Of a stretch of 64,000 bases of DNA, positions 22,178-44,184 are shown one piece after another. Below the pieces are notes generated by a model. It had not been told where the DNA came from. It worked only from the letters and a program-made list of their open reading frames with translations, and did no database searches. Position numbers and translations under genes: made by a program. This DNA is from Deltaproteobacteria bacterium (GTDB lineage Bacteria > Myxococcota_A > UBA796 > SXON01): assembly GCA_014191855.1 (NCBI GenBank), contig BJHF01000002.1:62001-126000 (forward strand). The letters run 5' to 3'. Numbering within the stretch: the stretch's first letter is position 1; every line of letters starts with the position of its first letter.

Positions 22178-23505
22178 AAGTCGAAGCCTTCCGGGAGCGG
22201 CGCGACCTCGGCCTCGGCCACGTTGCGCCCCTCGATGGCAGCCCGCTCCGCGTCGGCCAGCTCCGGATCCGTCGCGTTCACCTGAAACCGGAAGTGCTCG
22301 TGTGGCCGGTACGCGACGTGTTGTTGGCAGCGGCCCAAGACTCCGATCAGCTCACGCAGGAACCGGCGCGGCGTCGTCTCGACCTTGCCACGAAACGCGC
22401 CGGCCACCTCGCCAGCGAGTCGCGAGACGAAGGCGTCGTCGCAACGGTCGGTCGTGCCCGGATACCGAACCTCGTACAGATCGCGCACCGCAACGCCTAC
22501 ACTCTGGAGCCGCGCAGCGTTGAAGGGGGGAAGGGCGATCTGAGCCGCGTCGAGGTCGGGGAAAGGGCCGTCGTCGAGGGTGCCAATGCGCTGCTGGAGC
22601 GGTTCCAGCATCGGCACCGCCCGCGAGGAGGTGAAGAAGCTCGACGTCCCGGCCACGACGAGCAGCACCCCCGGCACCTGCCCCGCCTCCATCGCGCCCA
22701 TCCAGTTCTGGAGCAGTTCCAGGCCGGTTTTCCGGGAGTCGGCGCGGGGGAGGCGCACCAGGCGCTCCACCTCGTCCACCACCACCACGAGGCCGCGGTA
22801 GCCGGCTTGGGTGACGAGCGCGGCGAGGCCCCGGAGCATCGGGAGCACGTCCGTAGCGTCGAGGTTTCCGACGAGGTGCGCCCGCCGCTTGGCGGTGGCC
22901 GCCACCTTGGGATCGCCTCCGACCCATTGGAGCAAGGCGCGGGCCACCTCCTCCTCCCCGGCGAGAGACGCCGCCGCGTAGGCGCCCAGCGCCTGGGCGA
23001 ACGCGGGCGCGGCGTCCGCCACCCCGCCGAGCATGGTCTTGACCTCCTTGGACAACGCCTCGTCGAAGCCCGGTTCACCCGGCTGGAGCCCGTGCCCCAG
23101 CGAAGGGTCCATCACGCGCTCGGTCGCCTTGTATAGCCACTGCTCGGCCACGTGGCGCAGCGCACCATCCGGGCGCTCCGACACCCCCAGCCCCGAGCAG
23201 AGCGCTCGGTACACCGCCACGGGTTTGTGGAGCGGCACCTCGGGGTAGCTCACGCGGACGTAGCTGGCCGCGAAGCCTTCCTTCCGGGCCAACGCGGCGA
23301 GGTAACGCAGGAAGAACGTCTTCCCCGCGCCGAAGTCGCCGCGGACGAAGCGGGCTCGGCCTCGCCCCGCGGCGATCCGCGGAAGCTCCTTTGCCAAGGC
23401 GGCGATGTGGGCCTCGATCCCCGTGGCGATGGCGTCCTGGCCCTCAGCCGGCACCTCACCCACCCGCAGCGCCTCGATGACGATGTCGGCTGTACGTTCG
23501 TCCAT
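22174..23505 (-). CDS. brxD: BREX system ATP-binding protein BrxD
   Basis: A 443-residue AAA-type ATPase. Walker A is GDFGAGKT (residues 56-63), followed by the family string FFLRYLAALARKEGFAASYV; Walker B is GLVVVVDEVERL. The protein matches BrxD (DUF2791-type P-loop), found in BREX types 2 and 6. It is believed to act with the partner helicase. ATG 23505 was chosen because it overlaps the pglZ stop by one base (TGATG), consistent with every other junction in this operon; the open frame allows 7 more residues upstream. Confidence 0.9.
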   Translation of the reverse strand: MDERTADIVIEALRVGEVPAEGQDAIATGIEAHIAALAKELPRIAAGRGRARFVRGDFGAGKTFFLRYLAALARKEGFAASYVRVSYPEVPLHKPVAVYRALCSGLGVSERPDGALRHVAEQWLYKATERVMDPSLGHGLQPGEPGFDEALSKEVKTMLGGVADAAPAFAQALGAYAAASLAGEEEVARALLQWVGGDPKVAATAKRRAHLVGNLDATDVLPMLRGLAALVTQAGYRGLVVVVDEVERLVRLPRADSRKTGLELLQNWMGAMEAGQVPGVLLVVAGTSSFFTSSRAVPMLEPLQQRIGTLDDGPFPDLDAAQIALPPFNAARLQSVGVAVRDLYEVRYPGTTDRCDDAFVSRLAGEVAGAFRGKVETTPRRFLRELIGVLGRCQQHVAYRPHEHFRFQVNATDPELADAERAAIEGRNVAEAEVAPLPEGFDL

Positions 23506-26000
23506 CAACCGCGTCCTCCCACCCAACGATACCGCCGCTCACCGCCCGATTCTTCCTCGACAAACGGCGCTGAAACGCCGGCCCGTGCGAGCAGCGCGAG
23601 GCACCGACTCATCACACCGCCCACGATGAAGGGGGCCTGCCCGAGCAGGACACAAAGTTGGGCCATGGTCAGAACCTCGGCGCGCGCCAGGTGAGCGAGG
23701 GCTCGGAGCGCCAAGGGTTGGGACGCGAGGGCACGCTGCACGCCGTCCGAAAGGTCCGATCCGGGCACGCTGGGCGGTGCCCCGAGCACGCGCACTGGCT
23801 CCGGGGCGGGCGCGAGCTCCTCCGTCGCCGCGCCGGTCCACCACCAACTCGGCGGCCGCGGACGCCCCTCCGCTCCCTCCACGCGCCCCAAAAACGCGAG
23901 GGGCACAATCATCTCCTCGATGCCGGCCCCGCCGTGGAATCCCCGGTGTTGCGGCCCGCAAAAGTGGCCCAGCGCAACGAGGCAGTGCAGCGGGGAGAAC
24001 GGAAGCGGTCCCTCGCGAAACTCAACGGACCCGGGGAGCGGCTCCGCACCGAAGCGCGCCCCCAGCGCGCTGGCCGCCACCTTGCGGTCGCCGGCCAGAA
24101 ACGGCGTGTGCCCGTGGTCGGCGGTCACGACGACGGTCCATCCGTGGTCAGCCGCGAACCGGATCGCGTCCAGGGCACCGCCGCCGAGCGCCGCGAGGCT
24201 CCACTCGGCGAGGGCCGTCGTTTCCTTGCTGGAAAGGGCGTCGTCGACCCCGTTGAACACGGCGGCGACGATGCGTTCGTTACCTGAGCGCAACGCTGCG
24301 ATCAGCGCGCTGGGGTCGGCCAGGTCGCCCTTGAGGAACAGCGTCCGCGGGTGTTGGCGCAGGGCCGCGTTGCGCGAGAACGCTTGTTTGTCGGCCGTAC
24401 TGTTGGCCACGACGCTCTCCGAGTCGGTCAGCGAGGCGTTGCCGGGAATCTCGCCAGCAAAGATCGCGCGGCGCGCGTGGCTCGTAACCGTCGGCACCGG
24501 CGAGATCGCGACGTGGAAAGGGCCGATAGCGGCGAGGTCGTCACGGAGCGGGCCATCCGCCACCGCTGGAAGCCGGAGCCCCAGGCCGGGAGGCAACGCC
24601 TCCGCGATCTCGGTGAACGTGGACAGGTCGCCCCCATCGAGGACGACGAGGAAGACCCGCTCACCGGCATCCACAAGGCGAGCGACCACCGACCGGGAGA
24701 CGTGGGCGAGCGGCAGGGGCGCGCGCAGGTCCTTCGAGGCATTCACCCGCCCCCAGTTGGCGGAAAACGTCTCGGCGAAGGCGCGGTTCCACACGTCACG
24801 CCACGCGAAAGCGCGCGAGAGGATCGCCTTGGTGGCCTCGGCCATCGCGCCGGACTCGCCGCCGGCCCGGCGCCGAATGCGGCGAATCGCAAGGTCGAAC
24901 CAGCCGATGTGATCGCGAGCCGCCCACGCCCACTTCACCCAGTCCGCGGGCGGGAGGGCCGTGCGCGTTGCCCGGGCGAGGCGGGCGAGGTCCCGCACCT
25001 GGGCGATCTCCTCGTTCGCATCGTCTGCGTGGATGTTGGCACGCAGGGCATCGATCAGGCCGTCATCCGGAGGATCGCCGTCGGCGCATCGATGAGCGAA
25101 GTCGAACAACGCCTGGTCGAGCGCGGCGCGGACGAGGGGCAGCCGCGGTGCCTGTTGCTCCGTGATGCGGCGTCGATGCGCCAATTGCTCCGCCGTCGCG
25201 AGTGCAGCTCGGGCGCGCTCGGGGGCCACGCGCCAGGCTTGTCGGAGGGCGAGATCGACGAGGTTTCGCAGCTCGCGCCACTCTCCCGGCGAGCGGGGAA
25301 CCGGCTCGACGGCCGTTTCGGGCGTCAGCTCCGCGAGCGCCCCGGCGGCCACCAGGCCCGGGATGTCGCCCGTGCGGGCGGCATAGGCCAACCAGCGGCC
25401 GGTGCGCGGATGCGCTTCGACGAGGGCTCGCTCCAGCATCTCGGGGATCCGCGTCGTCGGGGCTCGGTCGATGATCCAGCGCGCGAGAAGGTCAGAGTCA
25501 CGCTCGCGATCCAGCCGCTCATCCGTCCCGAGCTCGGCGGCGACAAGAACCGCCCGCACCTCAGCCGCGGTCACGATGCCGTGCTGGCTCCACCGGGAGG
25601 ACTGGTCGCGGAGGCGATCCAGCGACGCCAACACCGCGGCGCCCACCTCGTCCTCGGGGAGCGGCTCACAATCGCGGCCCGTCAGCGCCGCCACGATGTC
25701 GTCGGCCCGCAGCTCCACGGGCTTCCGCAGCCAGGCGCGCCCGGCGATGTCGAGCGGCGGCACAAACGCAGGGGGGACGATGGCGAGCAGCCGCGACGCC
25801 TCCGGCAGAGCGTCGCGGAGGGTCAGCTCGCCGGTCACGCGCTGGATGCGCCACTCCTCCCCGAGGAGCACGGCCGACGCCGACACGTCCCGGAGCACCA
25901 CGTGGTCGCGAACCAACACCAGATCGTGTTTCAGCGCCTCGCTCTGCTGTCCACGACGTAAACAGGCGTCTAACGCCCGCTCGCCGAAGGTGAGCGTCAC
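23505..26000 (-). CDS. pglZ: BREX phosphatase-fold protein PglZ
   Basis: An 831-residue PglZ, the only gene common to all BREX types. The alkaline-phosphatase-superfamily core is in the C-terminal half: LDGGD (residues 454-458) holds the first metal-binding Asp, and VVVTADHGHTPFL (DHGH at 628-631) and GGAGIEEMIVPLAFLG supply the others. The N-terminal half is helical and BREX-specific. PglZ is required for defence and for PglX function in known systems. GTG 26000 overlaps the pglY stop (GTGA). The last 60 residues resemble a winged-helix module. Confidence 0.93.
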   Translation of the reverse strand: MTLTFGERALDACLRRGQQSEALKHDLVLVRDHVVLRDVSASAVLLGEEWRIQRVTGELTLRDALPEASRLLAIVPPAFVPPLDIAGRAWLRKPVELRADDIVAALTGRDCEPLPEDEVGAAVLASLDRLRDQSSRWSQHGIVTAAEVRAVLVAAELGTDERLDRERDSDLLARWIIDRAPTTRIPEMLERALVEAHPRTGRWLAYAARTGDIPGLVAAGALAELTPETAVEPVPRSPGEWRELRNLVDLALRQAWRVAPERARAALATAEQLAHRRRITEQQAPRLPLVRAALDQALFDFAHRCADGDPPDDGLIDALRANIHADDANEEIAQVRDLARLARATRTALPPADWVKWAWAARDHIGWFDLAIRRIRRRAGGESGAMAEATKAILSRAFAWRDVWNRAFAETFSANWGRVNASKDLRAPLPLAHVSRSVVARLVDAGERVFLVVLDGGDLSTFTEIAEALPPGLGLRLPAVADGPLRDDLAAIGPFHVAISPVPTVTSHARRAIFAGEIPGNASLTDSESVVANSTADKQAFSRNAALRQHPRTLFLKGDLADPSALIAALRSGNERIVAAVFNGVDDALSSKETTALAEWSLAALGGGALDAIRFAADHGWTVVVTADHGHTPFLAGDRKVAASALGARFGAEPLPGSVEFREGPLPFSPLHCLVALGHFCGPQHRGFHGGAGIEEMIVPLAFLGRVEGAEGRPRPPSWWWTGAATEELAPAPEPVRVLGAPPSVPGSDLSDGVQRALASQPLALRALAHLARAEVLTMAQLCVLLGQAPFIVGGVMSRCLALLARAGVSAPFVEEESGGERRYRWVGGRG

Positions 26001-29884: not shown

Positions 29885-30484
29885 CTACTCCGTTCGCGAG
29901 GGGGGGAGCCATGCATCGAGCCGGGCGAAGGTCGAGGCTGAGGACGGGCGGGCCGCGACCGTCTCGCGGAGGCCGCCCTGCCAGTCCCCAGGGCGCGGGA
30001 TGCCCTGCCGGGCACCGAGCGGCTGGTGCCCGAGTTGGACACGCTCCGTGAGCGCCTCGTCGCGGTGAATGACGAACCCGGCGAGATCGACAACATCGAC
30101 GACGAGGATTCCCGCGGCGCGCGCCCAGCCCGTCGCTGGGGAGTCGTGCGTGTACACCGGGCACGCCAACCGCTTAGCCAGCACCAGGAGCCCGATGTCG
30201 ATGTCGCCCGGCCTGGGCGTTAGGCGGTGATGAGCGTTCGCGAACGGCTTGAGCTCCTGGGGCCGCACGCGCTCAGAGCGAAGGACGCCCGCCGCAAACC
30301 AGCGCCCGTGATGTTCACGGAGAGAGAGCTTGTTCTGCTCGACGATCACCCCCTGGGTAGCGACGATTCGCACGCCCCACCCCGCAAGCAACTCCAACAC
30401 CCCAATGGGGTCAAGCCCGAGGGAACCGCCGGACAGTTGCTTGGCGTGCAAAGCGGCATTCGCGTCGAGCGCGAGGTCGGACAC
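29885..30484 (-). CDS. PIN-like domain protein paired with the Xre-ImmA gene
   Basis: A 199-residue protein with PIN-like acidic positions: LALDANAALHA at the N-terminus, GDIDIGLLVLAKRLACPVYT and THDSPATGWARAAGI in the second half. PIN domains are Mg2+-dependent ribonucleases used as toxins. The upstream neighbour, 12 nt away, encodes an Xre/ImmA protein, and ImmA/IrrE-type regulators are commonly paired with PIN-like proteins (for example DUF4411) in defence islands. I infer a toxin/regulator pair. The catalytic set is incomplete by eye, so an inactive PIN fold is possible. Confidence 0.6.
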   Translation of the reverse strand: MSDLALDANAALHAKQLSGGSLGLDPIGVLELLAGWGVRIVATQGVIVEQNKLSLREHHGRWFAAGVLRSERVRPQELKPFANAHHRLTPRPGDIDIGLLVLAKRLACPVYTHDSPATGWARAAGILVVDVVDLAGFVIHRDEALTERVQLGHQPLGARQGIPRPGDWQGGLRETVAARPSSASTFARLDAWLPPSRTE

Positions 30485-30496: not shown

Positions 30497-31699
30497 TCAG
30501 TCGGCGGTCCAGTCGAGCGAGGCAGAGGTCCGGAACGTCGCCTGGGGTGTGAAGCCAAGTTTACCACCGACTTCCTGCCATCGTGCCATGTCCACGCGGA
30601 GGTTTTCGCGCACATAGCCTTCGCTCACCAACCCTGACGCGTGCGCACGCAACAGCAGGTCGAAGAGGGGGCCGGCCCGAAGTGGAGATACGCCAGAAGC
30701 AAGCGCCGCAGCATTTAGCTCGGGGGACGGATCGGCCCGATTCCACATGGCGGACGACGGCTCCCGAATCGCAATTTCGCCGCTGTATGCGATCCGTTGC
30801 ACATCGTTGAGGCGCGCGCGCGCAGCGAGATAGCCGACCCCGAAGGTGGTCATCAGGTGCTCAACGCGGCGACCAAGCTCCAGATCGCGGGTGCCGCTCC
30901 ACGCCTCCCGCAGGCCGTCCGTGGGTGCAAGGAGGCAAGCCGAGAAGGCGCGTGCGCGGCGCTCGATGCTGTCCTCCGCATCCCGCGCGACGCCCTTACG
31001 CCCCTTCGGGTAGGCGATGGCGCAGAACCGGTTCATCCCCTGCATTTTGGGGCGGTCGAACAGGAGGTGACAGAGCTCGTGCGCCAGCGTGATGCGCCGG
31101 CCCGTCGCCGCCTGGGTGTGTTCCCCCCGCCGATTCAGCACGATCACGGCACCCGTTTCCGGGGTGCCGAAGCAGAAGGCATCCACCTTCTCGTCGAGCG
31201 TTGCGCTCAACACCAATACGCCGAGCGGCCGGAGGAGCTGATCCGTGACGGACAGGATCGGGGCGGAGCCCAGGCGGAACTCCGCGCGCACTCGGCTCGC
31301 GAGCCGGTCGGGCGCGCCATCCTTGGGGTGTCGGTAGTCGTCGTCCGCGGCGAAGTTCAACACCCGGCTCCAACCATTGTCGTCACCGAGCTGCGCCTGA
31401 AGCCAGCGCGCTGTGCGCGCCACCGTGGCGGCCTCGCAGATCTCGAAGCGCGCGGTGACCGAGAGCACGGCACCATCCCCGCGCAGCAGTGCGGCCACCG
31501 GTGGCAACGTCGCCGATCCCGCTTCCAGCGCGTCGCCGACGTCGACGCCGTAGACATCCCCGAGCGTCGTGGCCTCGTCGTGATCGAGGTCGTCGTCGAT
31601 CTCCGCCGCTGCGAGCCTAGCGAGGCTCAGACCGGTGGCGCTCGCGACCTGATGCTGCGAGAACCCGAGATTTTCACGAATGGTTCGAAGCACCGTCAT
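30497..31699 (-). CDS. Xre-family regulator with ImmA/IrrE metallopeptidase domain
   Basis: A 400-residue protein. The N-terminal HTH (TIRENLGFSQHQVASATGLS, residues about 6-25) is Xre-like. The central part carries the zinc-peptidase motif HELCH (residues 207-211) within ITLAHELCHLLFDRPK, followed by ARAFSACLLAPTDGLREAW, the usual ImmA/IrrE continuation. Such proteins cleave or control repressors and antitoxins (ImmA of ICEBs1). It is followed after 12 nt by the PIN-like gene and then pglY. A 7-bp inverted repeat lies 37-59 bp upstream of its start, so it may autoregulate and drive the pglY half of BREX. Confidence 0.88.
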   Translation of the reverse strand: MTVLRTIRENLGFSQHQVASATGLSLARLAAAEIDDDLDHDEATTLGDVYGVDVGDALEAGSATLPPVAALLRGDGAVLSVTARFEICEAATVARTARWLQAQLGDDNGWSRVLNFAADDDYRHPKDGAPDRLASRVRAEFRLGSAPILSVTDQLLRPLGVLVLSATLDEKVDAFCFGTPETGAVIVLNRRGEHTQAATGRRITLAHELCHLLFDRPKMQGMNRFCAIAYPKGRKGVARDAEDSIERRARAFSACLLAPTDGLREAWSGTRDLELGRRVEHLMTTFGVGYLAARARLNDVQRIAYSGEIAIREPSSAMWNRADPSPELNAAALASGVSPLRAGPLFDLLLRAHASGLVSEGYVRENLRVDMARWQEVGGKLGFTPQATFRTSASLDWTAD

Positions 31700-32884: not shown

Positions 32885-35800
32885 TCAGCCGGGTCCAGGT
32901 GCGACGAGACCACCTACCCCACGGCGAAACTTCCGGCGCGCCCCTCGGCCGGCCACCACGAGGTCGCCGGTGGCCACCAGATCGTCGAGCACCCGCTCCA
33001 GCCGATCCGGTGCCCCTCTCCAGCTTCGTTCGAGCGCGTCGAAGGGCAGCTCGTCGTGTTGCGTGTCGGCGCGCGGGCCAAACAGTGAGCTTTGGGGCGG
33101 CATCGCCTTGTCGAAGAGGGCCATGGCGCCGCCGCGCTCGGCGAGGGTCGGGGCAGTCGTGAGGCGCTCCTGCTCGGCACCGATCACCACCTCGCCGCGC
33201 CTCCACGCTGCCCAGCGCTCCACGACGGGGCACGGGCAGGAGGGCTGGTTGCACACTTCCTGCGCGAGCGCGTGTAGCTCCGCGTGCTCGGCGGCGTTGG
33301 CCCACCGTTTTACGTCGGGGAGGCTCTCCCACAGGCCGAGCGTGGCACCGCATCGGCGGGGGTCATCGGAGGTGGGGGCGGGCAACGGCGCGTCGGGGTG
33401 GCGCTCGGCGAGGGTGAACGCCTCAACTTGCGCCAGGGCCCGGTCCTTGTCGCGCCCACCGTTCCACCCGTAGCGGGCCGGGCTGAGGTCGGCGTAGAGG
33501 ATGAAGCGCTCGCGGGGGACGTTGAGCTTGCCGCGAGTGGCGAAGTAGCTGCTTTGGAAGTCGGCCTTGTCGAACTTCGGCGGGAGCGGGATGTTGTTCG
33601 TGACGACGCCGGACTCGTCATGGAGCGGCTCGCCTGTGCGCGGGTCGACGAGCTGGGTCACCGCTGCGTCTTCCTGGTCCTGGAGCGCCCACACCCGCTT
33701 CCACTCGTCGAGCTTGCGGAGGCCCTCCGCGGTGTAGACGCGACGGGGGTTGTCGGGGAGCGCCGCGCCTTTGAGCAACTTCTCCGCCACCACCGCGAGG
33801 TCGGTGCGCGCACCTTCCCCGGTGAAGACGGCGGCGACGGCGGCGACGCGCGGATCGCGCTGCCACGCGGAGACGACGGCTTCGAGGCGATAGGGCTTCG
33901 GGGTGGCGAGCGCGGCAGACGCCGTGTGCTTGGATTGCTCGGAGCGAGGGGCGAACAGGTCTTCAAGGCGGTCGAGGAGCCAGCGCTCGGCGCCGGAGGT
34001 CGCTTCTTTGTCGAGGTCGGGGGTTTGCCAGCGGCGCTTGTAGGCGAAGGACTCCAGTAATTGAAGGCGCGGGTCGGCCTCTATGGCGGCCATACGGGTT
34101 TCAAGGCGTTCGCGGTGGCCGCCCTGGTAGCGGGCGGGGATGTCGGTGACGCGGTCGTGGCCGTGGCGGGACCACCACTTCGACTTCTCGTCGGCGTCCG
34201 CCTCATCATCGGCGCGGGCGGCGAGGATCTCGAAGGGGCGGTGGCCGGGCGCGAGGGGCTCGATTGCGTCGGGGCCGACGGCGGGGAGCGGGTCGATCAG
34301 GGCGTAGGAGCCGTAGGTCAGCCAGTCCAGTTCTTCCTGGAGGGCGACCATGCGCTCGGTGAGGGCTCGGTAGCGGCCGCGGGCGGCGGTGAGCTTTGTG
34401 GGGAGGTCTGCGGGCGTCCAGTCGGTCGAGGCGAGGACGGCGGCGGGGAGGCAGGCGGCACGGGCGGTGGCGGTGGCGTCGAGGGCGCGGGCGAGGGCGA
34501 TGCGGGCGGGGCCGTCGCGGGTGGTGAGGGGGGCGGATTGGAGCTTGGTCGAGTCGTACTCGTAAAACTGCTCCCACGGTTCGGCCTTGATGCCCTCGCC
34601 AACCCCCTGGGCGCCCTTGCAGTGGAATACCTGTTTCATCCAGAAACCGAGCGCACTGCTGTTGAGGACGCCGAGCAGGTCCAGGTGGTCATTATCGTTG
34701 GCCACGGCGGGTAGTTTGATTACCGGGGCCGTGCGATTGAACACCTTCCCACCCCGATCAAGGACAAACTGGCTGTGGGTTGACACGAATGCGAATGTGA
34801 TGGACAACCGAGTACTCAACTTTTCAAGAGCCAAAAAGCTGAGTTCCGACCATTGTAATCCGCGTTGAATCTGGGTCTTTCCGAAGAATATCCGCCCCTG
34901 GAGACGCCAACGGTACGGCCAAAGAAACCGGAACGAGGCATCGGCCCGGCCGAGTCGAAGCGCCACGAACGAGCTGCGGTCATACGGAAAGATACACTCG
35001 GTAAGGCGCTGGGCGTAATCCCGGATGTCGTCCCCAACTCCGAATCCACAGACTTGGTCGGCAGGGACACCCATTCTTGCGAGGCTTCCTGGGCTGTGAG
35101 TAAAGACATCGTCTTCAAGCGTGAGTGCCATAACCCCGGTTGAAGCTGCGACCTGGGCAACAGTCTCGGAGGCCGCATCCTCCATCTCCTTCTTGATTTC
35201 CGCAGCGAATCCGCCCCCCAAGCTCCATGGATGGGCTTCGTAGGTACGGCGGGTCAGTATCTTCTTGGTCACATAGGGGTTCGCGTCCTCGGGTCCGTCG
35301 CCCAGCGCGGTGATTGCGCTCCAAACCATGCCCCGCTCCTCCTCGCCCTCCTTCGGTCGCTTCGGTTCTCCGCGCTTCCCCAGCGCCGCCCACACCAGGT
35401 CGCTCGCTGGCGCTCGCGCCCGGCCAAATAGGATGACCGTCGGAGTCCCGTGCCCCGGGATGTACGCCCCCGAGGTGTCCACAACTCCGGTGAGGTCCCA
35501 ACGCGGAAAAACAGTCTCTACCAGCTTTTTTCCAAATTCACGCTTCATGAAGCTGTTCGCCGTGATTTGCCCCATGAAGCCACCGCGCGTCCCCAGTACG
35601 AACAGGCGCTCCACGAATGGCGCAGAAAGCGCATACTTGCCGGCTGCGGAGCGTGGCCAGAACACCCGATAATCATCCCGCTTCTTCACATCCTTGGGCG
35701 TGATGTACGGCGGATTCCCGACCACGACATGGAACGCCCGATCAAGGAACCTCGCGTTGCGCTCTCGCTCTTCAGGCGTTGCGTACGACGAAAGCAGGTC

Positions 35801-36820
35801 GTTCCCCGCGAACAACGTGCCCTGTTTTCCCGCGTGCGCCCCGCGCTCCCACGGGATCAGCGAGTCCAGCACCGCGAGGTTGAACGTCAGCGTTCGCAGC
35901 CGCCCCAGGTCCCGCTCGCCCGTCCACGCCATCACCTCCAGCAGCAGCCGAAAGCGCGCGATGTCCACCGCGTGCGCGTTGATGTCGGATCCCCACACCG
36001 AGGCCCGCGCCCGCTCGCCCGCCTCCCACCGGCCCAAACCCCGAGCCTCCAACCACGCCGCGAGCCGCCGCCACGCACCGATCAGAAAGTGCCCGCTCCC
36101 GCAGGTGGGATCGAGCACGCGGAAGGTCTCGTCCTTCGCCCGAAGCGCCTCGGGGTCGAACTCCACGAGCGCGGGGGTGAGCGTCTTGTCGAGGATGTAC
36201 GACTCGACGAAGTGCGGTGTCTGCAACAGGGCAAAGCGCTTGCGCACCTCGCCGTCGAGGTCCTGGTACAGGTCCCCGAGGAAGCGGCTTTCGAACCCGC
36301 CGCCATTTGTGTCGGCGGCGGTGCCGCCCGCCTCGACCGGCCGCCAGTCGTAGAGCAGGTTCCCCCGCCCGTCTTCTTTGTGCCACAGGGTCCACGCCTC
36401 GCGGCAGAGGTCCTCGCTTGGCAGTGCCAATTCCTCGTCGCCTGCCTCGAACAGGGTGGGAAAGTCCGTCGCGAGGTCGCTGAAGATGAACGCGAAATAG
36501 GCCCGTTTTCCCAGCGCCGGGGCGAGTTGCCGGAACGCTTCCTCGCCGCGCAAGCCCCGGATCCGCTCGAACTCCAGCGCGCCCAAGTCTTCGAGCACGC
36601 GAACGTAAACCGTCCGCAACAGGAACTGCACCGCGCTCTTGCGGGCGGCCATCGCCGTGTAGTCGTCCGCGCGCCCGCCGACTTCGGCGGCAGCGTGGCG
36701 CTTCGCGCTGGCGGCCTGCATGACAGGGTCCGCGCGCACGGCGGCGATGTGCGCCTCAGCGATGCGCTTCTCCAGCTTCTGGAGGTCTTTCAGCAGCGTC
36801 TTGTACGTTTCGGCGTTCAT
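32885..36820 (-). CDS. pglX: BREX N6-adenine DNA methyltransferase PglX
   Basis: A 1311-residue class 1 methyltransferase. The SAM-binding motif DPTCGSGHF is at residues 237-245 (motif I) and the catalytic NPPY at 369-372 (motif IV, VVGNPPYITPKD), giving N6-adenine specificity. A long C-terminal half carries the target-recognition region. PglX methylates host DNA at a BREX motif and so marks self, while non-methylated phage DNA is blocked. Its ATG overlaps the stop of the last small paralog gene (ATGA). Length fits the type 2 form. No frameshift or phase-variable tract is seen in the gene. Confidence 0.95.
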   Translation of the reverse strand: MNAETYKTLLKDLQKLEKRIAEAHIAAVRADPVMQAASAKRHAAAEVGGRADDYTAMAARKSAVQFLLRTVYVRVLEDLGALEFERIRGLRGEEAFRQLAPALGKRAYFAFIFSDLATDFPTLFEAGDEELALPSEDLCREAWTLWHKEDGRGNLLYDWRPVEAGGTAADTNGGGFESRFLGDLYQDLDGEVRKRFALLQTPHFVESYILDKTLTPALVEFDPEALRAKDETFRVLDPTCGSGHFLIGAWRRLAAWLEARGLGRWEAGERARASVWGSDINAHAVDIARFRLLLEVMAWTGERDLGRLRTLTFNLAVLDSLIPWERGAHAGKQGTLFAGNDLLSSYATPEERERNARFLDRAFHVVVGNPPYITPKDVKKRDDYRVFWPRSAAGKYALSAPFVERLFVLGTRGGFMGQITANSFMKREFGKKLVETVFPRWDLTGVVDTSGAYIPGHGTPTVILFGRARAPASDLVWAALGKRGEPKRPKEGEEERGMVWSAITALGDGPEDANPYVTKKILTRRTYEAHPWSLGGGFAAEIKKEMEDAASETVAQVAASTGVMALTLEDDVFTHSPGSLARMGVPADQVCGFGVGDDIRDYAQRLTECIFPYDRSSFVALRLGRADASFRFLWPYRWRLQGRIFFGKTQIQRGLQWSELSFLALEKLSTRLSITFAFVSTHSQFVLDRGGKVFNRTAPVIKLPAVANDNDHLDLLGVLNSSALGFWMKQVFHCKGAQGVGEGIKAEPWEQFYEYDSTKLQSAPLTTRDGPARIALARALDATATARAACLPAAVLASTDWTPADLPTKLTAARGRYRALTERMVALQEELDWLTYGSYALIDPLPAVGPDAIEPLAPGHRPFEILAARADDEADADEKSKWWSRHGHDRVTDIPARYQGGHRERLETRMAAIEADPRLQLLESFAYKRRWQTPDLDKEATSGAERWLLDRLEDLFAPRSEQSKHTASAALATPKPYRLEAVVSAWQRDPRVAAVAAVFTGEGARTDLAVVAEKLLKGAALPDNPRRVYTAEGLRKLDEWKRVWALQDQEDAAVTQLVDPRTGEPLHDESGVVTNNIPLPPKFDKADFQSSYFATRGKLNVPRERFILYADLSPARYGWNGGRDKDRALAQVEAFTLAERHPDAPLPAPTSDDPRRCGATLGLWESLPDVKRWANAAEHAELHALAQEVCNQPSCPCPVVERWAAWRRGEVVIGAEQERLTTAPTLAERGGAMALFDKAMPPQSSLFGPRADTQHDELPFDALERSWRGAPDRLERVLDDLVATGDLVVAGRGARRKFRRGVGGLVAPGPG

Positions 36821-37254
36821 GGGCGGCGGCCCCCCGGGGCCGGGGATGGCGTCGTGAGCTTCGTGAACTCGGCGCGGATATACGGCTCACCGTCCCGCAT
36901 CACCACCTCGGTGTGAACCACAAACCGAGCGTCGGCGGGCTGGAGCGTGAGGCAACGGGTGAGGATGGCGTTGGCGATCCGTGCGCGCCGGGGCTCCCCG
37001 CGCGGCAAGGCTCGCCAGCGGTCGATCAGGTCCGGACCGGCGAGGTTTTGGGCGCCTCCGAGGAATCGGGAGACGTTCCAAGCCAGCGCGGCGAGCTCGG
37101 CCAGTTCGGCGACGCCTTCGGGGTTGTCGGGCGGATTCAGCTCGCATTCGAAGGGCTGTGCCAGCGCGGCGAGCACGGCCGACATCGGCACTTCCGCCTC
37201 AGATTCGGGCTGCGGTGCAGGACGGCGCGGAGACCGGGGGTTCCACCTCGCCAT
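36817..37254 (-). CDS. BREX-embedded small paralog 4 (unknown family)
   Basis: 145 residues, MARWNPRSPRRPAPQP at the start. It shares with its three upstream neighbours the N-terminal tag M-(G/A)-(K/R)-W-(K/N), a central LAALAWNVSRFLGG motif and a C-terminal strand after a basic/Pro/Asp segment (PADARFVVHTEVVMRDGE). It is the most divergent of the four: the Asp-Arg-Arg-x-x-T-G motif is replaced by DARFVVHTEV. Its start overlaps the previous stop by one base (TGATG) and its stop overlaps the pglX start by 4, so translation is coupled to pglX. Soluble, no signal peptide. Function unknown. Confidence 0.7.
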   Translation of the reverse strand: MARWNPRSPRRPAPQPESEAEVPMSAVLAALAQPFECELNPPDNPEGVAELAELAALAWNVSRFLGGAQNLAGPDLIDRWRALPRGEPRRARIANAILTRCLTLQPADARFVVHTEVVMRDGEPYIRAEFTKLTTPSPAPGGRRP

Positions 37255-37727
37255 CAGGGAGTCCCGATTGAGGCGGCGCGAAGACGCAGAAGCGAGCCTT
37301 CAATCTCCACGTTGACGCCGGTCAGCAGGCGTCGGTCGTCAGGCTGCAGCTCGCGGGCTCGGTCGAGCATGGCCCAAATCTCCGGGGCCAGCTCCGGCGC
37401 CAGTCGGCACATCTCACGCAGGCCGGCGAGGGCGGCTGCGGAGGCGTCGCCCCGCACGCGGGAGGAGTTCCACGCTTGCATCGCGATGGTGGCCAGCAGC
37501 CGGTTGGTCTGCAAATCTGTGGGACAGCCCAACCGCTCGCGGGTCGGGCCCATCAAGTGGTCGATGATGTCGACGTTCTGCACGATGTCTCGACGCGTGG
37601 CTTTCACCAGCACCTTCCTACCCAGGAGCGCCTCGGCGTGCGCGCCGGCCTCGGCGATCCGCTCCGCCGTTTGCACGATTCGACCGGAACGCGGGCGCAG
37701 GCGGGGGTTGGGTTTCCATTTGCCCAT
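37254..37727 (-). CDS. BREX-embedded small paralog 3 (unknown family)
   Basis: 157 residues beginning MGKWKPNPRLRPRSGRIVQT. The start at 37727 is set by the TGATG overlap with the preceding paralog and by the conserved MGKWKP opening; the open frame upstream of it is a translation of the neighbour in another frame. The middle has MQAWNSSRVRG, matching AWN-x-SR in all four copies, and the end has PDDRRLLTGVNVEIEGSLLR, close to the end of paralog 1. The N-terminal 40 residues after the tag are longer than in paralog 2 and helix-rich. Function unknown; likely to act with PglW/PglX by position. Confidence 0.72.
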   Translation of the reverse strand: MGKWKPNPRLRPRSGRIVQTAERIAEAGAHAEALLGRKVLVKATRRDIVQNVDIIDHLMGPTRERLGCPTDLQTNRLLATIAMQAWNSSRVRGDASAAALAGLREMCRLAPELAPEIWAMLDRARELQPDDRRLLTGVNVEIEGSLLRLRAASIGTP

Positions 37728-38131
37728 CAGTCGATCTCGCTGGACGTGGCGTGCACGACCACCCCGCTGTCGACAACGCGGATGCTGGCCCCCGTGACGA
37801 CGCGGCGATCCGTGGGAAAATCCCGACACGCGATTTCAAATATCCAACCGTACACCGCGGTGATGTTTGGATTGCCCCGGCACGCTTCGTCGTGGGCCTC
37901 GTCCACGAGCGCGCGCATATGCTCCCCCTGGAGCGCAAGGCGCGAGGCATTCCACGCCAATTTGCACAGCTCCAGCCACGCCTCGTATCCCGACTCCGTT
38001 TCGGGGATCTCCGACCGCTCCGTGATGTGTGCGATCAGCTCCCCGAGGATCGCGGACATCGGGGGCCGGGCGCTGCGAGCGCGCTGCCGGCCGGCCCGGA
38101 CGAGCCGGGGATCGGGCTTCCACTTGCCCAT
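37727..38131 (-). CDS. BREX-embedded small paralog 2 (unknown family)
   Basis: 134 residues, the shortest copy: MGKWKPDPRLVRAGRQRARS, then PPMSAILGELIAHITE, the shared CKLAWNASRLALQGE motif, and the C-terminal PTDRRVVTGASIRVVDSGVV. The sequence pattern, helix-helix-AWNxSR helix-basic turn-beta strands, is the same in its neighbours but identity is low, so the duplications are old or rapidly diverging. One-base TGATG overlaps join it to paralogs 1 and 3. No catalytic residues are evident. Confidence 0.72.
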   Translation of the reverse strand: MGKWKPDPRLVRAGRQRARSARPPMSAILGELIAHITERSEIPETESGYEAWLELCKLAWNASRLALQGEHMRALVDEAHDEACRGNPNITAVYGWIFEIACRDFPTDRRVVTGASIRVVDSGVVVHATSSEID

Positions 38132-38616
38132 CAGTCGTCCCCACCAACCGAGGCCGCGTTCACCCGCATCTCGCCACCCCCGAGGATGTCAACCGTGACG
38201 CCCGTGATCAGGCGGTGATCCTCGGGGTACATCCTGCGAGCGCGAGAGAGCACGGCCTCGAATACCGGCGCCATATCGGGTTCCAAGTCCGCGACCTTGC
38301 GCCGCGCTGCTTCCACCTCGGCCAGCGAGCCCTCGCCGCGGAGGGCCAGGCGCGAGACGTTCCACGCCGTCGAGCACAGCAGCGCGAGTGTCTCCATCGG
38401 CCGTTTTTCCACGGGGATGTCCACGAGTCGCCGGATGGGGGCCATCAAGTCGACGAGTATCGCCGAGGCGGCAACGCGGGTGCCGCGCAGGGGACGCTGA
38501 ATCGGGTCCGCTTCTGTGCCCACGATCCGGGCCAGGCCGTTCGTGGCCGCGCGTTCGGCACCGGCGAGAGCGTTCGTTGAGCTGCGCCGCGCCCGCTTCG
38601 CTTTCCACTTGCCCAT
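38131..38616 (-). CDS. BREX-embedded small paralog 1 (unknown family)
   Basis: 161 residues, MGKWKAKRARRSSTNALAGA at the start. ATG 38616 was chosen over the codon just before it because it overlaps the pglW stop as TGATG and gives the shared MGKWK opening. Conserved features are CSTAWNVSRLALRGEGSL in the middle and YPEDHRLITGVTVDILGGGE at the end. It is the closest of the set to paralogs 2 and 3. First of four tandem copies between pglW and pglX; such a cassette is not part of the standard type 2 BREX gene list known to me. Confidence 0.72.
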   Translation of the reverse strand: MGKWKAKRARRSSTNALAGAERAATNGLARIVGTEADPIQRPLRGTRVAASAILVDLMAPIRRLVDIPVEKRPMETLALLCSTAWNVSRLALRGEGSLAEVEAARRKVADLEPDMAPVFEAVLSRARRMYPEDHRLITGVTVDILGGGEMRVNAASVGGDD

Positions 38617-41600
38617 CAAACACTCTCCAGGAACACCGCACCCATGTCCGGCGTACAGGCGAGGTTATACCGCTCGTTCAGCCGCACGCGGTCGTCGTGG
38701 ACGCCGCCCGGGATCGCAAACACCACGAGGCCGTGGGTGCCGCCGCGGGCACGTTCGTAGAAGCCGCTGAGCCAGTCCATCAGGCCGAGGGTGCCGAGCA
38801 GCGCCGGGCGGGCGAACACCGTGACCACCCCCGGCCGCGCGTCACGCTCCAACTGGCGCAGCGCCGGCCGCACTTCGTCCGCAACCCAGCCCCAGTCGGC
38901 CTTGGGGTTCGCTTCGAAGTAAGGCACCTGCTCCCAAAGCTCCGCCGCCTTCAGCGCGTCGATCACCGTGCGGTCCACATCTTCGAAGCGCACGCGGTCG
39001 TCCCCCAATTCCGCTCGAAGCCAGCCGACAAGCTCCCGGGAGCACCGATGGGCGGACTCCGGCCGCATCACGACCACCCGCACGCCGCCGCGGTCCACCT
39101 GCGCTACCAGGGAGCGCACCACGCCAGCCTCCGGCCCGGCTCGCTGTCGCGGCACCGTCGCATCCACGATGGGGTTCACCACCGGCGAAGCCAGGGAAAC
39201 GCGACCGGGATCCGACCACACCCCGCCATCCAACCGATACCCCGCCTGCTCCAACGTGAGCGCGAGATCGTCGCAGTCGCCCACTCCCTCCCAGCGGCTC
39301 CGGGCCTCGATCACCAGCTCCTCCGCCGACGCCTGGGCAGTTCCGACCGGGCGGAGCTGGATGAGCGCATCGACCAATGGCACCGGAGGCAAGTAGAGCG
39401 CACCCAACGCATCGATCCGCAGGTTGGGCGAGAGGGCGAGCAATGCGTCGAGGAGCCCGGTCGCGTCGGCACCCCAGCGCACCAGGGCCCGGCGCGTGTC
39501 CTCGTCGAGCGCGTCCCATGTGGTCGCCTCCAACGTGCGCCGGAACCGGGGCGGCCACTGCACTGTGTCCTCCAGCGCCTCCACGAGCACCGGCAGCGCC
39601 TCAACCCGCCAGGGTGGACGAGCGACGTACTCCAAACCACCCGCGTCGGTCGGCCGAAGGTCGTCGCGGAGGAGCAACGCCGCCAATCTCGCGTAGCCAC
39701 TCGCCGAGACCGCCCCGCGTGGACGCAAGGGAAGCCGGTTGGTGAGCGCCTCCGCCACCTCGTCGAGTCCGGCGAACCCCACAGCCGGCAGCAGCTCCTC
39801 CACGAGCCCGACGAGCTGGCGGCCGACGCTCCCCGGCTTCCGCAGGTCATCGGTGTCGATGAGCTGATGGATGCGCTGGCGACTGACGCCGAGCAGCTCC
39901 CCCGCTCCGGGGAAATCCCGCGCATGGCCATCGTTGAGCCCCACCACGGCGGCAAGCGCGGCGTAGGCTCGATCCCCCACCTCGGCACGCAGGGCCTCGT
40001 CCAGCGCGTCGAGCCCGTCGAAGCCCCCGTCGCGACCGGCCAGCCGGACGAGGTGTTTTCGGGTGGCGTCTCTCCGTTCCACGGGGAAGTTCGGCAGCCC
40101 AGCGAGCGCCACGAGCGGCATCCTCGCCAGGTCGCCCACCGTGCGGATGCCGCGTTCACCAAACGCCGCGGTTTGCCCCTTGCTGAGCCCCAGCTCCACG
40201 CTCCCGAGCAAGCGTTCATCGTTCGCCAATGCCGGGTAGTACCGCTCCAACGCTGCGGGGGCCTCGGTGGGCAGATCGGGCCAGCGCGCCCGAGCCTGAT
40301 CGGCGTAGGCCAATAGCTCCCGGGTGGTCTTGGCCCCGACGTTGGGGAGTCGGGCGAGGAGCGGGGCGTCCAACGCCGCGAAGTCACCCACCGTGACGAC
40401 GGCGAGCCGCGCCAGGGCGCCTTGGGCCCGCACCGACAGGGGCAGGTCGTTCACCAGATCGCCCGGCGCTGCCGCTTCGGGCAGGGCGGCGGTGTCGGCC
40501 GAGCGGGTTCGCGACGGGCGGGCGGAGGCGAGCGCGCCATCCAGCGCCACCAACGCTTCGGGAATGCCCCGCGGGCGGCGCTCCCTCGTGGGCGAGAGGG
40601 CCGCCACGAAGACTCCGGCCAGCGCCTTTGCCGCCGCCGGACTGAACGAATCCGGGAACAGCTCCGGCTCGATGGCGGGCTCGTGACCGCTGTCGGGCGC
40701 AGCGGAGCCGAAAGGGTGAGCGCCGGTGAGGAGCTGGTACAGAACGAGGAAGGCGGCGTATTGGTCGTTCGCCTTCGTCCACCTCCCCTCGGCATACAAC
40801 AGCGGGTCTTTGTACTGCACGGTGCCGACGGCCAAGCCGCCCTCGGCGCTGAGGTTCGCCGCGAGGCCGAGGTCCACCAAGGTCACCCGAGCGTCCGGCT
40901 CCCGGAGCATGACATTGTCGGGCTTGACGTCGCGATGGAGGAAGCCCGCTTCGTGCAGCGCGTGCAACCCGCCCAAAAGGCCGCGCGCGACGTCGAGGAA
41001 CCGCGCAGGCTCGAAGGGATCGCCAGCCCCGGCCCAGAGCGTCGCCGTCACCCCCTCCACGAACGCGAGGCCGAGCACGATGTGGTCGCCCTCGGGCTCG
41101 ATGCTCAACACATCCACGACATTCGTGTGCTTCACCGCCCGACCGATGCGGTACTCCTCCCGCAGGTGGGGCGCGTGCACAGCCTCGGCGATCTTGAGCA
41201 CGACCACGCCCTCGGCGTGCAGGTGGGTCGCCAGCCACGTCGTGCTGGTGGACCCTCGCCCCAGCCGCTGCTTCAGCACGTAGCTCCCGCGCACTTCGCG
41301 CCCCACCGCCCACTCGGTCGGGGTGGCCACCTTGGTCAGCTCCGCGTGCGCCGCTTCCAGCGCCTCCGCCACCTCCTCGGCCCCGGCAGGTCGATGCGCC
41401 GGGTCGGGATGCAGCAGGGCAACGAGCGTGCGGAACACGGCTGGTGGTACCTGTCGCCCACCGACGTCGAAGGGCACGAGGCTGAAGGGGCGAAGTACCG
41501 CATCTGGCGTGGCAAAGAGCGGCCGGCCCGCGAACAGCTCGTGGAGCAACGCGCCGAGGGAGAACAGGTCGGAACGAGCCGTCGCCTCCCCGGATCGCAG

Positions 41601-42716
41601 CGCTTCGGGCGCGCTGCAGCGAAAGCTCGGATCCCCCAGCGACGTGCCGGTGATCGTTTGGCTCACGGCGGTGAGATCGCGGGCGAGGTCGAAGCCCGTG
41701 AGCCGAACGTCCGCCTGCGCTTCGCCGCTTCGGCCCGTCACAAGTACCGCCTCGGGGCACAAGCGCCGATGAACGAGTCCGCGGGCGTGTACCCAGGCGA
41801 CAGACCGAGCCACCCGGGCGGCGACCGCGAGCCGCGGGGCCAACCCGGGCGCCCGGTCTCGAACCCACACGTCGCAGGGCACCAGCGGCGTCGTGTCATC
41901 GAACATCAACACCACGCGCCGCGGATCGTCGGTGACCTCGAAGAAGTCGCGGTAGCCAAGCAGATCTGGGCCCCCACGCAGCTTCTCGTGGAGCGTGGCC
42001 TCCCGCATCGCGTGGTTGCGCGTGCGTTCGCGCTCGGCAGTGTCCTCGCCGCTCACGGTGTGGACGTGGAGCACGCGCTTGTCGTCCCCACGTCGGGCCA
42101 GCCATGCCTGATAAGGGCGGTCTTCCGCCGCGAGCCGCTGTTCGAGGTGGAAGCCGTTGATCTGTTCCGGCGCGCGCGTAGCCGAGCCGTCGTTCAGGAA
42201 CTTGTGGACGGCGCTGAGCACCCCCGGCGCGATGCGACGCCCATCGCCGAAGGCGGTGGGCGTCGTGAGCGCCTGAACGATGTCCCGCTGGGTGCAGACC
42301 AGACTCGCGAAGTCGGGGGTGATGTGCGGGACCGCGTCGCCCCGCGACAAGAACACGAGCCCCTGCACCCACACGTCGGCAAGGTCGCGACGAAGCGCGA
42401 TGAGGCGGCCCTTGAGTGAGCGGGACTTCGCGAGGATCAACGGGAGCGGTGACTGAACGAAGGCACCATCGGCCAGCGTCCAGCGATCTCGATTGCCGGT
42501 GATCGTGCCGCCCCAGCTCTTCAGCTCGACGGCGAACACCCCGTGAGGCGCCACCACCACCGCGTCGTGCTCGTAGGTTTGCGCCCGTTGCCCCGTCGCC
42601 AGCTCGATGTTGCTGTACACGACGTAGTTGTCCGGCAATCCAGCGACCAACGCCCGGATGCCTCGTGCTTCGCCGTCGTGGGCCGGGAGGCCCTTGGCCA
42701 CATGCCGTGCCGCCAT
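38616..42716 (-). CDS. pglW: BREX serine/threonine kinase PglW
   Basis: A 1366-residue protein. Residues about 10-150 form a NERD (nuclease-related) domain (YEHDAVVVAPHGVFAVELKS with Glu-x-Lys). A first kinase-like domain around residues 200-430 is degenerate: HRRLCPEAVL near 316 replaces the HRDxKPxN loop. A second kinase (about 475-730) is intact, with RLGRGSTSTTW, HRDVKPDN at 594-601 and VDLGLA in place of DFG. The C-terminal half includes helix-hairpin-helix-like segments (LPNVGAKTTRELLAYA). PglW is the type 2 BREX signature kinase. Its ATG overlaps the preceding stop by one base. Confidence 0.93.
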   Translation of the reverse strand: MAARHVAKGLPAHDGEARGIRALVAGLPDNYVVYSNIELATGQRAQTYEHDAVVVAPHGVFAVELKSWGGTITGNRDRWTLADGAFVQSPLPLILAKSRSLKGRLIALRRDLADVWVQGLVFLSRGDAVPHITPDFASLVCTQRDIVQALTTPTAFGDGRRIAPGVLSAVHKFLNDGSATRAPEQINGFHLEQRLAAEDRPYQAWLARRGDDKRVLHVHTVSGEDTAERERTRNHAMREATLHEKLRGGPDLLGYRDFFEVTDDPRRVVLMFDDTTPLVPCDVWVRDRAPGLAPRLAVAARVARSVAWVHARGLVHRRLCPEAVLVTGRSGEAQADVRLTGFDLARDLTAVSQTITGTSLGDPSFRCSAPEALRSGEATARSDLFSLGALLHELFAGRPLFATPDAVLRPFSLVPFDVGGRQVPPAVFRTLVALLHPDPAHRPAGAEEVAEALEAAHAELTKVATPTEWAVGREVRGSYVLKQRLGRGSTSTTWLATHLHAEGVVVLKIAEAVHAPHLREEYRIGRAVKHTNVVDVLSIEPEGDHIVLGLAFVEGVTATLWAGAGDPFEPARFLDVARGLLGGLHALHEAGFLHRDVKPDNVMLREPDARVTLVDLGLAANLSAEGGLAVGTVQYKDPLLYAEGRWTKANDQYAAFLVLYQLLTGAHPFGSAAPDSGHEPAIEPELFPDSFSPAAAKALAGVFVAALSPTRERRPRGIPEALVALDGALASARPSRTRSADTAALPEAAAPGDLVNDLPLSVRAQGALARLAVVTVGDFAALDAPLLARLPNVGAKTTRELLAYADQARARWPDLPTEAPAALERYYPALANDERLLGSVELGLSKGQTAAFGERGIRTVGDLARMPLVALAGLPNFPVERRDATRKHLVRLAGRDGGFDGLDALDEALRAEVGDRAYAALAAVVGLNDGHARDFPGAGELLGVSRQRIHQLIDTDDLRKPGSVGRQLVGLVEELLPAVGFAGLDEVAEALTNRLPLRPRGAVSASGYARLAALLLRDDLRPTDAGGLEYVARPPWRVEALPVLVEALEDTVQWPPRFRRTLEATTWDALDEDTRRALVRWGADATGLLDALLALSPNLRIDALGALYLPPVPLVDALIQLRPVGTAQASAEELVIEARSRWEGVGDCDDLALTLEQAGYRLDGGVWSDPGRVSLASPVVNPIVDATVPRQRAGPEAGVVRSLVAQVDRGGVRVVVMRPESAHRCSRELVGWLRAELGDDRVRFEDVDRTVIDALKAAELWEQVPYFEANPKADWGWVADEVRPALRQLERDARPGVVTVFARPALLGTLGLMDWLSGFYERARGGTHGLVVFAIPGGVHDDRVRLNERYNLACTPDMGAVFLESV

Positions 42717-43513
42717 CAGGCCTCCCCCGCCAGCAGGCGGGCGCGACCGGCGAGGAAGCTGCGACGCAGGATGCCGTGCGCAATCCCGACTTCAACCGCC
42801 TGCCCGGCTTCTCCGGCACGCGGAGCGAACAACAACGCGGGGAAGGAGTGGGCGACGGCCCAGGCTTCGTCGCACTCTCCAGCGCCCCGGCGAAGCTGGT
42901 CCGCCAACGCCCATGCGAGGGCGACCGAGTCGGGCGCCCCGCGGGTGGCGCGTGTCAGCCGCGTTTTCTGCCCAATGATCGTGATGCAACCGGCCATCGC
43001 GAGGGCGGTGTGCAGGGTGCTCCTCGTCTTCTTGAACGCCTCCTCGGGGAGCCCCGGACGGAGCACCGACCGGAGCCAGCGATCCCACTCGGAGGCGGGG
43101 ATCAGGCCTGCGTCGGCGGGGGCAAGCGGGGCCTCGGAGCGCAGCAATGCCGGGCGAACCAGCGTCGTCAGCGCGGGGAGGATCAGCGGTCGCTGGGAGA
43201 GCAGCCGCGCGCGAACCAGGCCGCGGCGGCGTGAGGCAGAGCCGCCATGGAAAAGCTGGAGGAATGCCGTGTTCTTTACGGCTCCGTCCTGCCAGTCCAA
43301 CAGCTCGTCGCGCACGATCCCCACCAGCTCCCGGCGCCGGGCGAGGCTGCCCTGGGGGATGGCGGCGTGGCCTTCCACGATCCACTCGGCGAGCGGCCTG
43401 CCGGGAACCGCGAGTTCCAGCAGCGTCAGTGCCTCAGGTTCGTTGAGCGTTCGCGTCCACGACGGGAGCCAGCTCTGCGGAGGTGGCGCCTGCTGCGGGA
43501 GGGACGAGGTCAT
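42716..43513 (-). CDS. BREX leader protein 2, possibly BrxA-like
   Basis: 265 residues from ATG 43513, placed by the ATGA overlap with the upstream stop. The protein is helical: ALTLLELAVPGRPLAEWIVE, then GSLARRRELVGIVRDELLDW and SEWDRWLRSVLRPGLPEEAF followed by KKTRSTLHTALAMAGCI. This order of helices, with an Arg-rich early helix and a Lys-x-Arg-x-T helix ending in AMAGCI, recalls BrxA (DUF1819) of other BREX types, but similarity is by pattern only. No membrane helix or nuclease motif is seen. It is directly coupled to pglW (TGATG). Confidence 0.55.
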   Translation of the reverse strand: MTSSLPQQAPPPQSWLPSWTRTLNEPEALTLLELAVPGRPLAEWIVEGHAAIPQGSLARRRELVGIVRDELLDWQDGAVKNTAFLQLFHGGSASRRRGLVRARLLSQRPLILPALTTLVRPALLRSEAPLAPADAGLIPASEWDRWLRSVLRPGLPEEAFKKTRSTLHTALAMAGCITIIGQKTRLTRATRGAPDSVALAWALADQLRRGAGECDEAWAVAHSFPALLFAPRAGEAGQAVEVGIAHGILRRSFLAGRARLLAGEA

Positions 43514-44184
43514 GCCCAACGAACGTCCAGTTGCAGCTCGGCGGCCAGCGCCTCGGCGGGGGCCCAACCGCGGATGCCCATCGCCCGGTCGAAGCGTACG
43601 CCCTGCTTCACCGCCCGGCGCAGCGCATCGGAGGTGTAGATCGTGGGCGGGTTGGCGCGGGCCTCAACCGCAGCGAGGCCCACAAGCGCACGCTCCTCGT
43701 CGGTGTCGGCCACGAAGGCGAACTGATCGTGGAACGAGAGGCCGGGCTGACCGACTACGTGCCACGCGGCGATCCGGCCCGCGGAGCCCGGCAATTCCAG
43801 TACGCGCTCACGGGGAAGCGGGCGCGGGAGCTGGGAAAACGCGCCGCCGGCGGGGAGGCCCAAGCCGCGGGCCGCCGCGCGGAGGAACGTGGAGGCGTCG
43901 GTTTGATCCGGCGTGGACGCGTCACGCACCAGCGCCTCCGCCTCCGCTTCCGAAAGGTCGGCGAGCGGGTCGATGGTCCAGCTCGCGAATCCAAACGGCG
44001 TCGGGAAGGACTCGGCGAGGTCGGCGTGGAGCACCTCGACGAAGGCCCGCCAACCGAGGTTTCGTCGGATTCGGTGCCACTTTTCGAACCCGGGCTCGGA
44101 AACGCGGGGCGACCGGAGCCCACCCGGGCGTTCGAGGCGCGCGATGGAGCGAAGCGTCCACGGGAGGGCGGGATGAGGCGGCAT
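43510..44184 (-). CDS. BREX leader protein 1, unknown
   Basis: 224 residues, MPPHPALPWTLRSIARLERP at the start. Contains EKWHRIRRNLGWRAFVEVLH, SEAEAEALVRDASTPDQTDA and FHDQFAFVADTDEERALVGL, ending in a short strand (AELQLDVRWA). It looks soluble and mixed alpha/beta; no known motif is recognised. By position (the first gene of the block, before a possible BrxA) it might correspond to a BrxB-like protein (DUF1788), but I see no convincing match. It is divergent from the secreted-protein gene, with 147 bp between, which should hold the main BREX promoter. Confidence 0.55.
   Translation of the reverse strand: MPPHPALPWTLRSIARLERPGGLRSPRVSEPGFEKWHRIRRNLGWRAFVEVLHADLAESFPTPFGFASWTIDPLADLSEAEAEALVRDASTPDQTDASTFLRAAARGLGLPAGGAFSQLPRPLPRERVLELPGSAGRIAAWHVVGQPGLSFHDQFAFVADTDEERALVGLAAVEARANPPTIYTSDALRRAVKQGVRFDRAMGIRGWAPAEALAAELQLDVRWA

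What the first reader, a model, noticed from the sequence alone, without database searches (positions are those of the whole stretch)
36817..38616. Four tandem diverged paralogs embedded between pglW and pglX of a type 2 BREX
Four consecutive small genes (161, 134, 157, 145 residues) all start MGKWK or MARWN, share a central AWN-x-SR motif and end in a basic turn plus beta strands (PxDxRxxTGxxV). All are joined by one-base overlaps and coupled to pglX. I do not know such a cassette as part of standard type 2 BREX. Tandem diverging copies suggest an accessory specificity or immunity family, perhaps subunits of a hetero-oligomer or targets of phage antagonists.
Basis: partly seen in the sequence, partly recalled or inferred. 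Interest (0 to 1): 0.82.

Follow-up and report, generated by a model that had tools for sequence, protein, structure and literature searches.

The report
Four related small genes inside BREX-2
Between two core genes of a bacterial anti-phage system (type 2 BREX) sit four diverged copies of one small gene, from an uncharacterised protein family that elsewhere occurs alone and away from BREX, so they look like an unusual add-on cassette whose job is unknown.

Summary
On the minus strand, four ORFs (161, 134, 157 and 145 aa) lie between pglW and pglX of a complete type 2 BREX operon. They are true paralogues: each is found by a profile of the other three at E 5e-27 to 8e-12. They are joined by TGATG one-base overlaps; the last overlaps pglX by four bases. 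They match nothing in Pfam, NCBIfam, PHROGs or PADLOC. They are not BREX-specific: a profile built only from outside relatives ranks the four first in the window (E 1e-14 to 2e-7; next 0.75). That wider family is patchy (24 of 377 genomes in the phylum), usually single-copy, standalone or a C-terminal domain, in unrelated contexts. Only the window has a tandem array beside pglW. The closest relative is a lone, apparently frameshifted copy with no BREX nearby. None of nine other BREX-2 loci has the cassette; several carry different cargo there (MazF module, Schlafen genes, YhcG nuclease, ATPases), three carry nothing. A confident AlphaFold core (four helices plus a hairpin) has no clear PDB match. 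My best reading is an accessory cassette with a shared docking N-terminus and diverged cores that modulate BREX; the mechanism is inferred only.

The parts
38131..38616 (-). paralogue 1, 161 aa; MGKWK start, AWNVSR, PEDHRLITGVTV; basic N-terminus (net +8 in 47 aa), alpha4-beta2 core
37727..38131 (-). paralogue 2, 134 aa; MGKWKP start, AWNASR, PTDRRVVTGASI
37254..37727 (-). paralogue 3, 157 aa; MGKWKP start, AWNSSR, PDDRRLLTGVNV
36817..37254 (-). paralogue 4, 145 aa; MARWNP start, AWNVSR, PADARFVVHTEV; most diverged copy; ATGA overlap with pglX
38616..42716 (-). pglW: NERD nuclease-related domain, two protein kinase stretches, RNAP-alpha-CTD-like domain
   Evidence: PADLOC PglW E 8e-284
32885..36820 (-). 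pglX: adenine-specific methyltransferase
   Evidence: PADLOC PglX 1120 bits
25997..29857 (-). pglY / brxC ATPase
23505..26000 (-). pglZ
   Evidence: NF033446 BREX-2 PglZ, 210 bits, cutoff 200
22174..23526 (-). brxD ATPase
   Evidence: PF10923, E 3e-111
20033..22177 (-). DEAD/DEAH helicase in the position of brxHI
30497..31699 (-). HTH plus M78 peptidase protein (RmrA/ImmA-like) between pglX and pglY: a second cargo site
29885..30484 (-). 199-aa partner gene of the HTH-M78 protein; PIN-like by my reading only
   Evidence: no family match
42716..43567 (-). unnamed gene directly upstream of pglW, conserved upstream of pglW in three other BREX-2 loci of the phylum
   Evidence: 34-40% identity
43510..44184 (-). 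second unnamed upstream gene, conserved in the same three loci
   Evidence: 48-54% identity

Best explanation
The finding is a local tandem expansion of an uncharacterised small-protein family, placed as cargo at the pglW-pglX junction of a BREX-2 operon and translationally coupled to both neighbours. Shown here: homology, membership of a wider non-BREX family, operon coupling, absence of the cassette from nine other BREX-2 loci, other cargo at the same site in several of those, and a confident alpha4-beta2 core behind a basic N-terminus with an MGKWKP motif. Inferred: the proteins are accessory regulators of BREX. The near-constant N-terminus would dock to one shared partner (most likely PglX, PglW or DNA held by the complex), while the diverged cores answer to different ligands such as phage anti-BREX factors or signals, tuning or restraining PglX/PglW activity.
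For: Leave-one-out profiles join all four. A profile of 25 outside members recovers the four as the top window ORFs, with a gap to E 0.75. Four copies plus the lone G034 copy form one clade (99/94). The copies are 24-35% identical overall, yet the first six residues of copies 1-3 match at 5-6 of 6 positions, and the lone relative also has MGKWKP. S88 and R89 are invariant in this subfamily and almost absent outside it. TGATG/ATGA coupling runs without a break from pglW to pglX, which suggests co-production with both. The junction is a cargo site elsewhere: CopG/MazF-PemK module, two Schlafen-like genes and ParA, YhcG PDDEXK nuclease, ParA-like ATPase genes, AAA ATPase; nothing in three loci. 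The domain is fused behind Ser/Thr kinases twice in G167. In Streptomyces, PglX is toxic unless restrained by PglZ and PglW kinase activity is essential (PMC4365076), so extra control of PglX would make sense.
Against: No direct evidence of any interaction with a BREX protein. The family is not associated with BREX outside this locus. The shared N-terminus could reflect translation initiation or the duplication unit rather than docking. One locus only; no second BREX-2 with the cassette was found, so neither conservation of the linkage nor selection on it can be tested.
Confidence: 0.33

Rival explanations
1. Passenger cargo. The array arrived in a BREX cargo site with no functional tie to BREX and is carried as a self-contained defence or addiction module, or as a neutral remnant of a mobile element.
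For: The same junction carries unrelated modules in other BREX-2 loci. Outside relatives often sit by mobile or toxin-antitoxin genes: overlapping an IS66 transposase, by IS66/IS21 genes, next to HipA and MqsA-like genes, by an addiction-module antitoxin, before a Schlafen AlbA_2 gene.
Against: No toxin-like or enzyme partner inside the cassette, no IS66-like sequence in the window, all four frames intact, and unbroken translational coupling with pglW and pglX.
Confidence: 0.3
2. Antidotes or restraints for PglX or PglW. The small proteins bind and hold the co-translated, potentially toxic methyltransferase or kinase/nuclease until infection.
For: Position directly between the two genes; in S. 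coelicolor PglX is toxic without PglZ and PglW was hard to express in E. coli (PMC4365076); the domain is fused to kinases in G167.
Against: Other BREX-2 systems manage without it, three of them with nothing in the junction; four diverged copies are more than one restraint needs.
Confidence: 0.17
3. Subunits of one hetero-oligomer: four specialised chains that assemble into a single complex.
For: Four coupled genes of one fold with a shared N-terminal motif; the C-terminal beta hairpin could in principle pair between chains.
Against: Relatives function, presumably, as single genes or single C-terminal domains; no complex prediction could be run.
Confidence: 0.12
4. Decayed array with little present function, expanded by unequal recombination.
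For: The nearest relative, in G034, is a lone copy split by an apparent frameshift, so loss happens in this lineage.
Against: Four intact frames, neighbour-like third-position GC, conserved start motif and core residues.
Confidence: 0.08

Closest known systems
Type 2 BREX / Pgl (pglW, pglX, pglY, pglZ, brxD, brxHI)
   Same: Complete set of core genes in the usual order around the cassette.
   Different: None of nine other BREX-2 loci examined has the four-gene cassette.
Auxiliary and backup effectors embedded in BREX operons (PMC12839542)
   Same: Extra genes inside or beside the core locus, as that census describes (Schlafen, HEPN, PIN, PD-(D/E)XK, HNH).
   Different: These four match no nuclease family or any other Pfam/PADLOC family and form a tandem paralogous array; the sections I read do not mention them.
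Wider uncharacterised 'WN' domain family (small proteins and C-terminal domains, e.g. L145, L149, L165; WP_012516872.1 on an Alteromonas plasmid)
   Same: Same core: S at the first core helix, invariant W then N, D-x-R before a C-terminal hairpin.
   Different: Outside members are almost always single, lack MGKWKP and the SR after WN, and usually carry K/R where this subfamily has A126.
Lone copy in a genome of the same family-level group (G034, L008)
   Same: MGKWKP start, SR after W, clade support 99/94 with the four.
   Different: Single, apparently frameshifted, between a pseudouridine-synthase-like gene and flagellar-like genes (my reading of the neighbours), beside an addiction-module antitoxin; no PglW found in that genome.

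Membership tests
Type 2 BREX operon | PglW kinase with NERD domain | tested here: met
Type 2 BREX operon | PglX, PglY/BrxC, BREX-2 PglZ, BrxD in one operon | tested here: met
Type 2 BREX operon | BrxHI helicase | tested here: inconclusive
   A DEAD/Helicase_C protein sits in its place; it was not scanned with a BrxHI-specific model
Standard BREX-2 gene set (is the cassette part of it?) | Cassette present in other BREX-2 loci | tested here: not met
   Absent from L024, L025, L026, L154-L159; nine loci only
Wider WN-domain family | Found by a profile built without the window genes | tested here: met
   E 1.2e-14, 1.4e-11, 3e-10, 2e-7; next window fragment 0.75
Wider WN-domain family | W-N in the second core helix and D-x-R before the hairpin | tested here: met
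Toxin-antitoxin module | A toxin and a cognate antitoxin gene side by side | tested here: inconclusive
   No TA family match for any of the four; remote or new toxins cannot be excluded
IS66 passenger gene | Lies within or beside an IS66 element | tested here: not met
   tblastn of an Alteromonas IS66 transposase and TnpB finds nothing in the window; met only for outside relatives
Ocr-like DNA mimic | Strongly acidic whole protein | tested here: not met
   Net charge +5, -2, +7, +1 with basic N-termini
Known PDB fold | Confident structural match | tested here: inconclusive
   Foldseek no hit with E below 0.8; second-look best Z 6.8 (3fbz_A) and 6.1 (8j2w_B), below the level that means relatedness

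The most novel reading that the evidence does not exclude
A new accessory layer of BREX-2: a diversifying tandem array of small adaptors that share one docking motif and carry different sensing cores, giving one BREX complex several independent triggers or anti-inhibitor guards.
Probability: 0.15. Interest if true: 0.8.

Novelty: new variant of a known kind. Interest (0 to 1): 0.5.

Why it matters
If the cassette works with BREX, it shows that a core anti-phage operon can take up and multiply a small regulatory family, and gives an entry point to how BREX-2 is switched, which is poorly understood. Even if it is only cargo, it documents a widely scattered domain (found in three phylum-level groups searched, absent from Pfam) and shows that the pglW-pglX junction carries different cargo in different BREX-2 systems.

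Tried and rejected
Family libraries: Pfam, NCBIfam, PHROGs and PADLOC gave nothing for the four, nor did Pfam for the wider family beyond isolated weak hits. PDB sequence profiles gave no relative. Foldseek on PDB and viral models and two second looks gave no convincing fold; a missed or lower-ranked fold is not excluded. A PglW search of 345 actinomycete genomes found none, but only two candidates per genome were scored, so this is not evidence of absence. Plasmids hold no tblastn relative of copies 1 and 3 and phages none of copies 1 and 3; a viral contig scan gave none. DNA-mimic idea rejected on charge. IS66-passenger idea fits some relatives, not the window. Inverted-repeat search did not delimit the IS66 element around the Alteromonas relative. 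Hits G305, G145, G068 and G007 were judged chance (weak, or inside long unrelated frames).

Full report
What is there. Four ORFs on the minus strand, 161, 134, 157 and 145 aa, fill the space between pglW and pglX exactly as described. Junctions pglW/1, 1/2, 2/3 and 3/4 all read TGATG, and copy 4 overlaps pglX by ATGA. Third-position GC matches the neighbours. The operon is a complete BREX type 2: PglW, PglX, PglY/BrxC, PglZ, BrxD and a helicase in the brxHI position.

Are they paralogues? Yes. BLASTP gives E 2e-21 (1 v 3) and 1e-18 (1 v 2). A profile of any three finds the fourth at E 5e-27 to 8e-12. In the window's own genome there are exactly four copies, all here. They are old duplicates: 24-35% identity.

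What family? No library names them. Profile searches of the window's phylum group (probably Myxococcota by my reading; the tool does not name it) found first a few, then 24 of 377 genomes with relatives. To avoid circularity I built a profile from 25 outside members only. It ranks the four window ORFs and the G034 copy above everything else, at E 1e-14 to 2e-7, with the next window fragment at 0.75; hhalign between the two groups gives probability 98%. Smaller samples of three other phylum-level groups, centred on records titled as a gammaproteobacterium, a planctomycete and an actinomycete, gave 1 of 125, 4 of 124 and 0 of 119. Members are about 120-250 aa proteins, or C-terminal domains, for example behind Ser/Thr kinases in G167 or behind a weak DUF6930 match in G069 and G066. 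Pfam has no model for the domain.

What marks this subfamily? The wider family shares W85, N86, D133 and R135. The four copies and the lone G034 copy add S88 and R89, which are 5% and 0% outside, and W4 of the MGKWKP start. The five form a clade (99/94), with the order inside unresolved. The G034 copy has MGKWKP in one frame and the core in another, so it looks frameshifted; it is single, beside an addiction-module antitoxin, and no PglW was found in that genome.

BREX link. In three other BREX-2 loci of the phylum and six on plasmids, none has the family. The pglW-pglX junction there holds: two Schlafen-like genes and a ParA-like gene (G282), a YhcG PDDEXK nuclease (G249), a CopG/MazF-PemK module (Thiodictyon), ParA-like ATPase genes (Streptomyces NBC_01334), an AAA ATPase (Polaromonas), nothing (G116, Rhodococcus, Azospirillum), and an unclear split gene (Sphaerotilus). 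The junction is therefore a variable cargo site. Nine loci is a small sample and the genome search for PglW was not exhaustive. The auxiliary-effector and type 2 sections of PMC12839542 describe embedded nucleases and similar cargo; I found nothing like this array in what I read.

Structure. AlphaFold with the 24-member alignment gives mean pLDDT 83.5, about 93 over most of residues 50-157: four helices (50-64, 71-92, 98-111, 113-128) and a beta hairpin (136-144, 150-157), behind a lower-confidence N-terminus. The N-terminal tails of copies 1-3 are strongly basic (net +7 to +8) and the cores neutral to acidic. No PDB match is convincing.

How it might work. Shown: one family, one coupled operon, one shared start motif, diverged cores, cargo-type position. 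Inferred: the shared N-terminus binds a common partner in the BREX complex or DNA, and the diverged cores respond to different ligands. Work on the Streptomyces Pgl system shows that PglX is toxic without PglZ and that PglW kinase activity is needed (PMC4365076), so additional small regulators encoded between the two are plausible. Passenger cargo is nearly as likely, because relatives elsewhere lie by mobile and toxin-antitoxin genes.

Verdict. As a mechanism it is open. I place it as a new variant (accessory cassette) of a known kind (BREX-2), interest 0.5.

Noticed in passing
window 43510-44184 (-) and 42716-43567 (-): Two unnamed genes upstream of pglW are conserved in the three other BREX-2 loci of the phylum (48-54% and 34-40% identity) but match no Pfam or PADLOC model and were not found in six plasmid BREX-2 loci; possibly lineage-specific core genes.
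   Followed up: partly
window 29885-31699 (-): HTH-M78 peptidase gene (RmrA/ImmA-like) and a 199-aa partner between pglX and pglY: a second cargo site in the same operon.
   Followed up: partly
L162:5986-6381 and L161:5986-6381: A relative of the family overlaps the 3' end of an IS66 transposase gene on two Alteromonas macleodii plasmids; it may be an IS66 passenger gene.
   Followed up: partly
L139:7394-7828 and L133:1492-1803: Two near-identical copies (97% DNA identity over 326 bases) of a relative at contig ends in G185, as expected of a mobile element or of an assembly duplication.
   Followed up: no
L146:4332-6497 and L134:367-1794: Two G167 proteins with an N-terminal Ser/Thr kinase and a C-terminal copy of the domain.
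   Followed up: no
window 45886-48192 (-): DUF3987 protein upstream of the BREX operon, a type often linked to mobile elements by my own knowledge.
   Followed up: no
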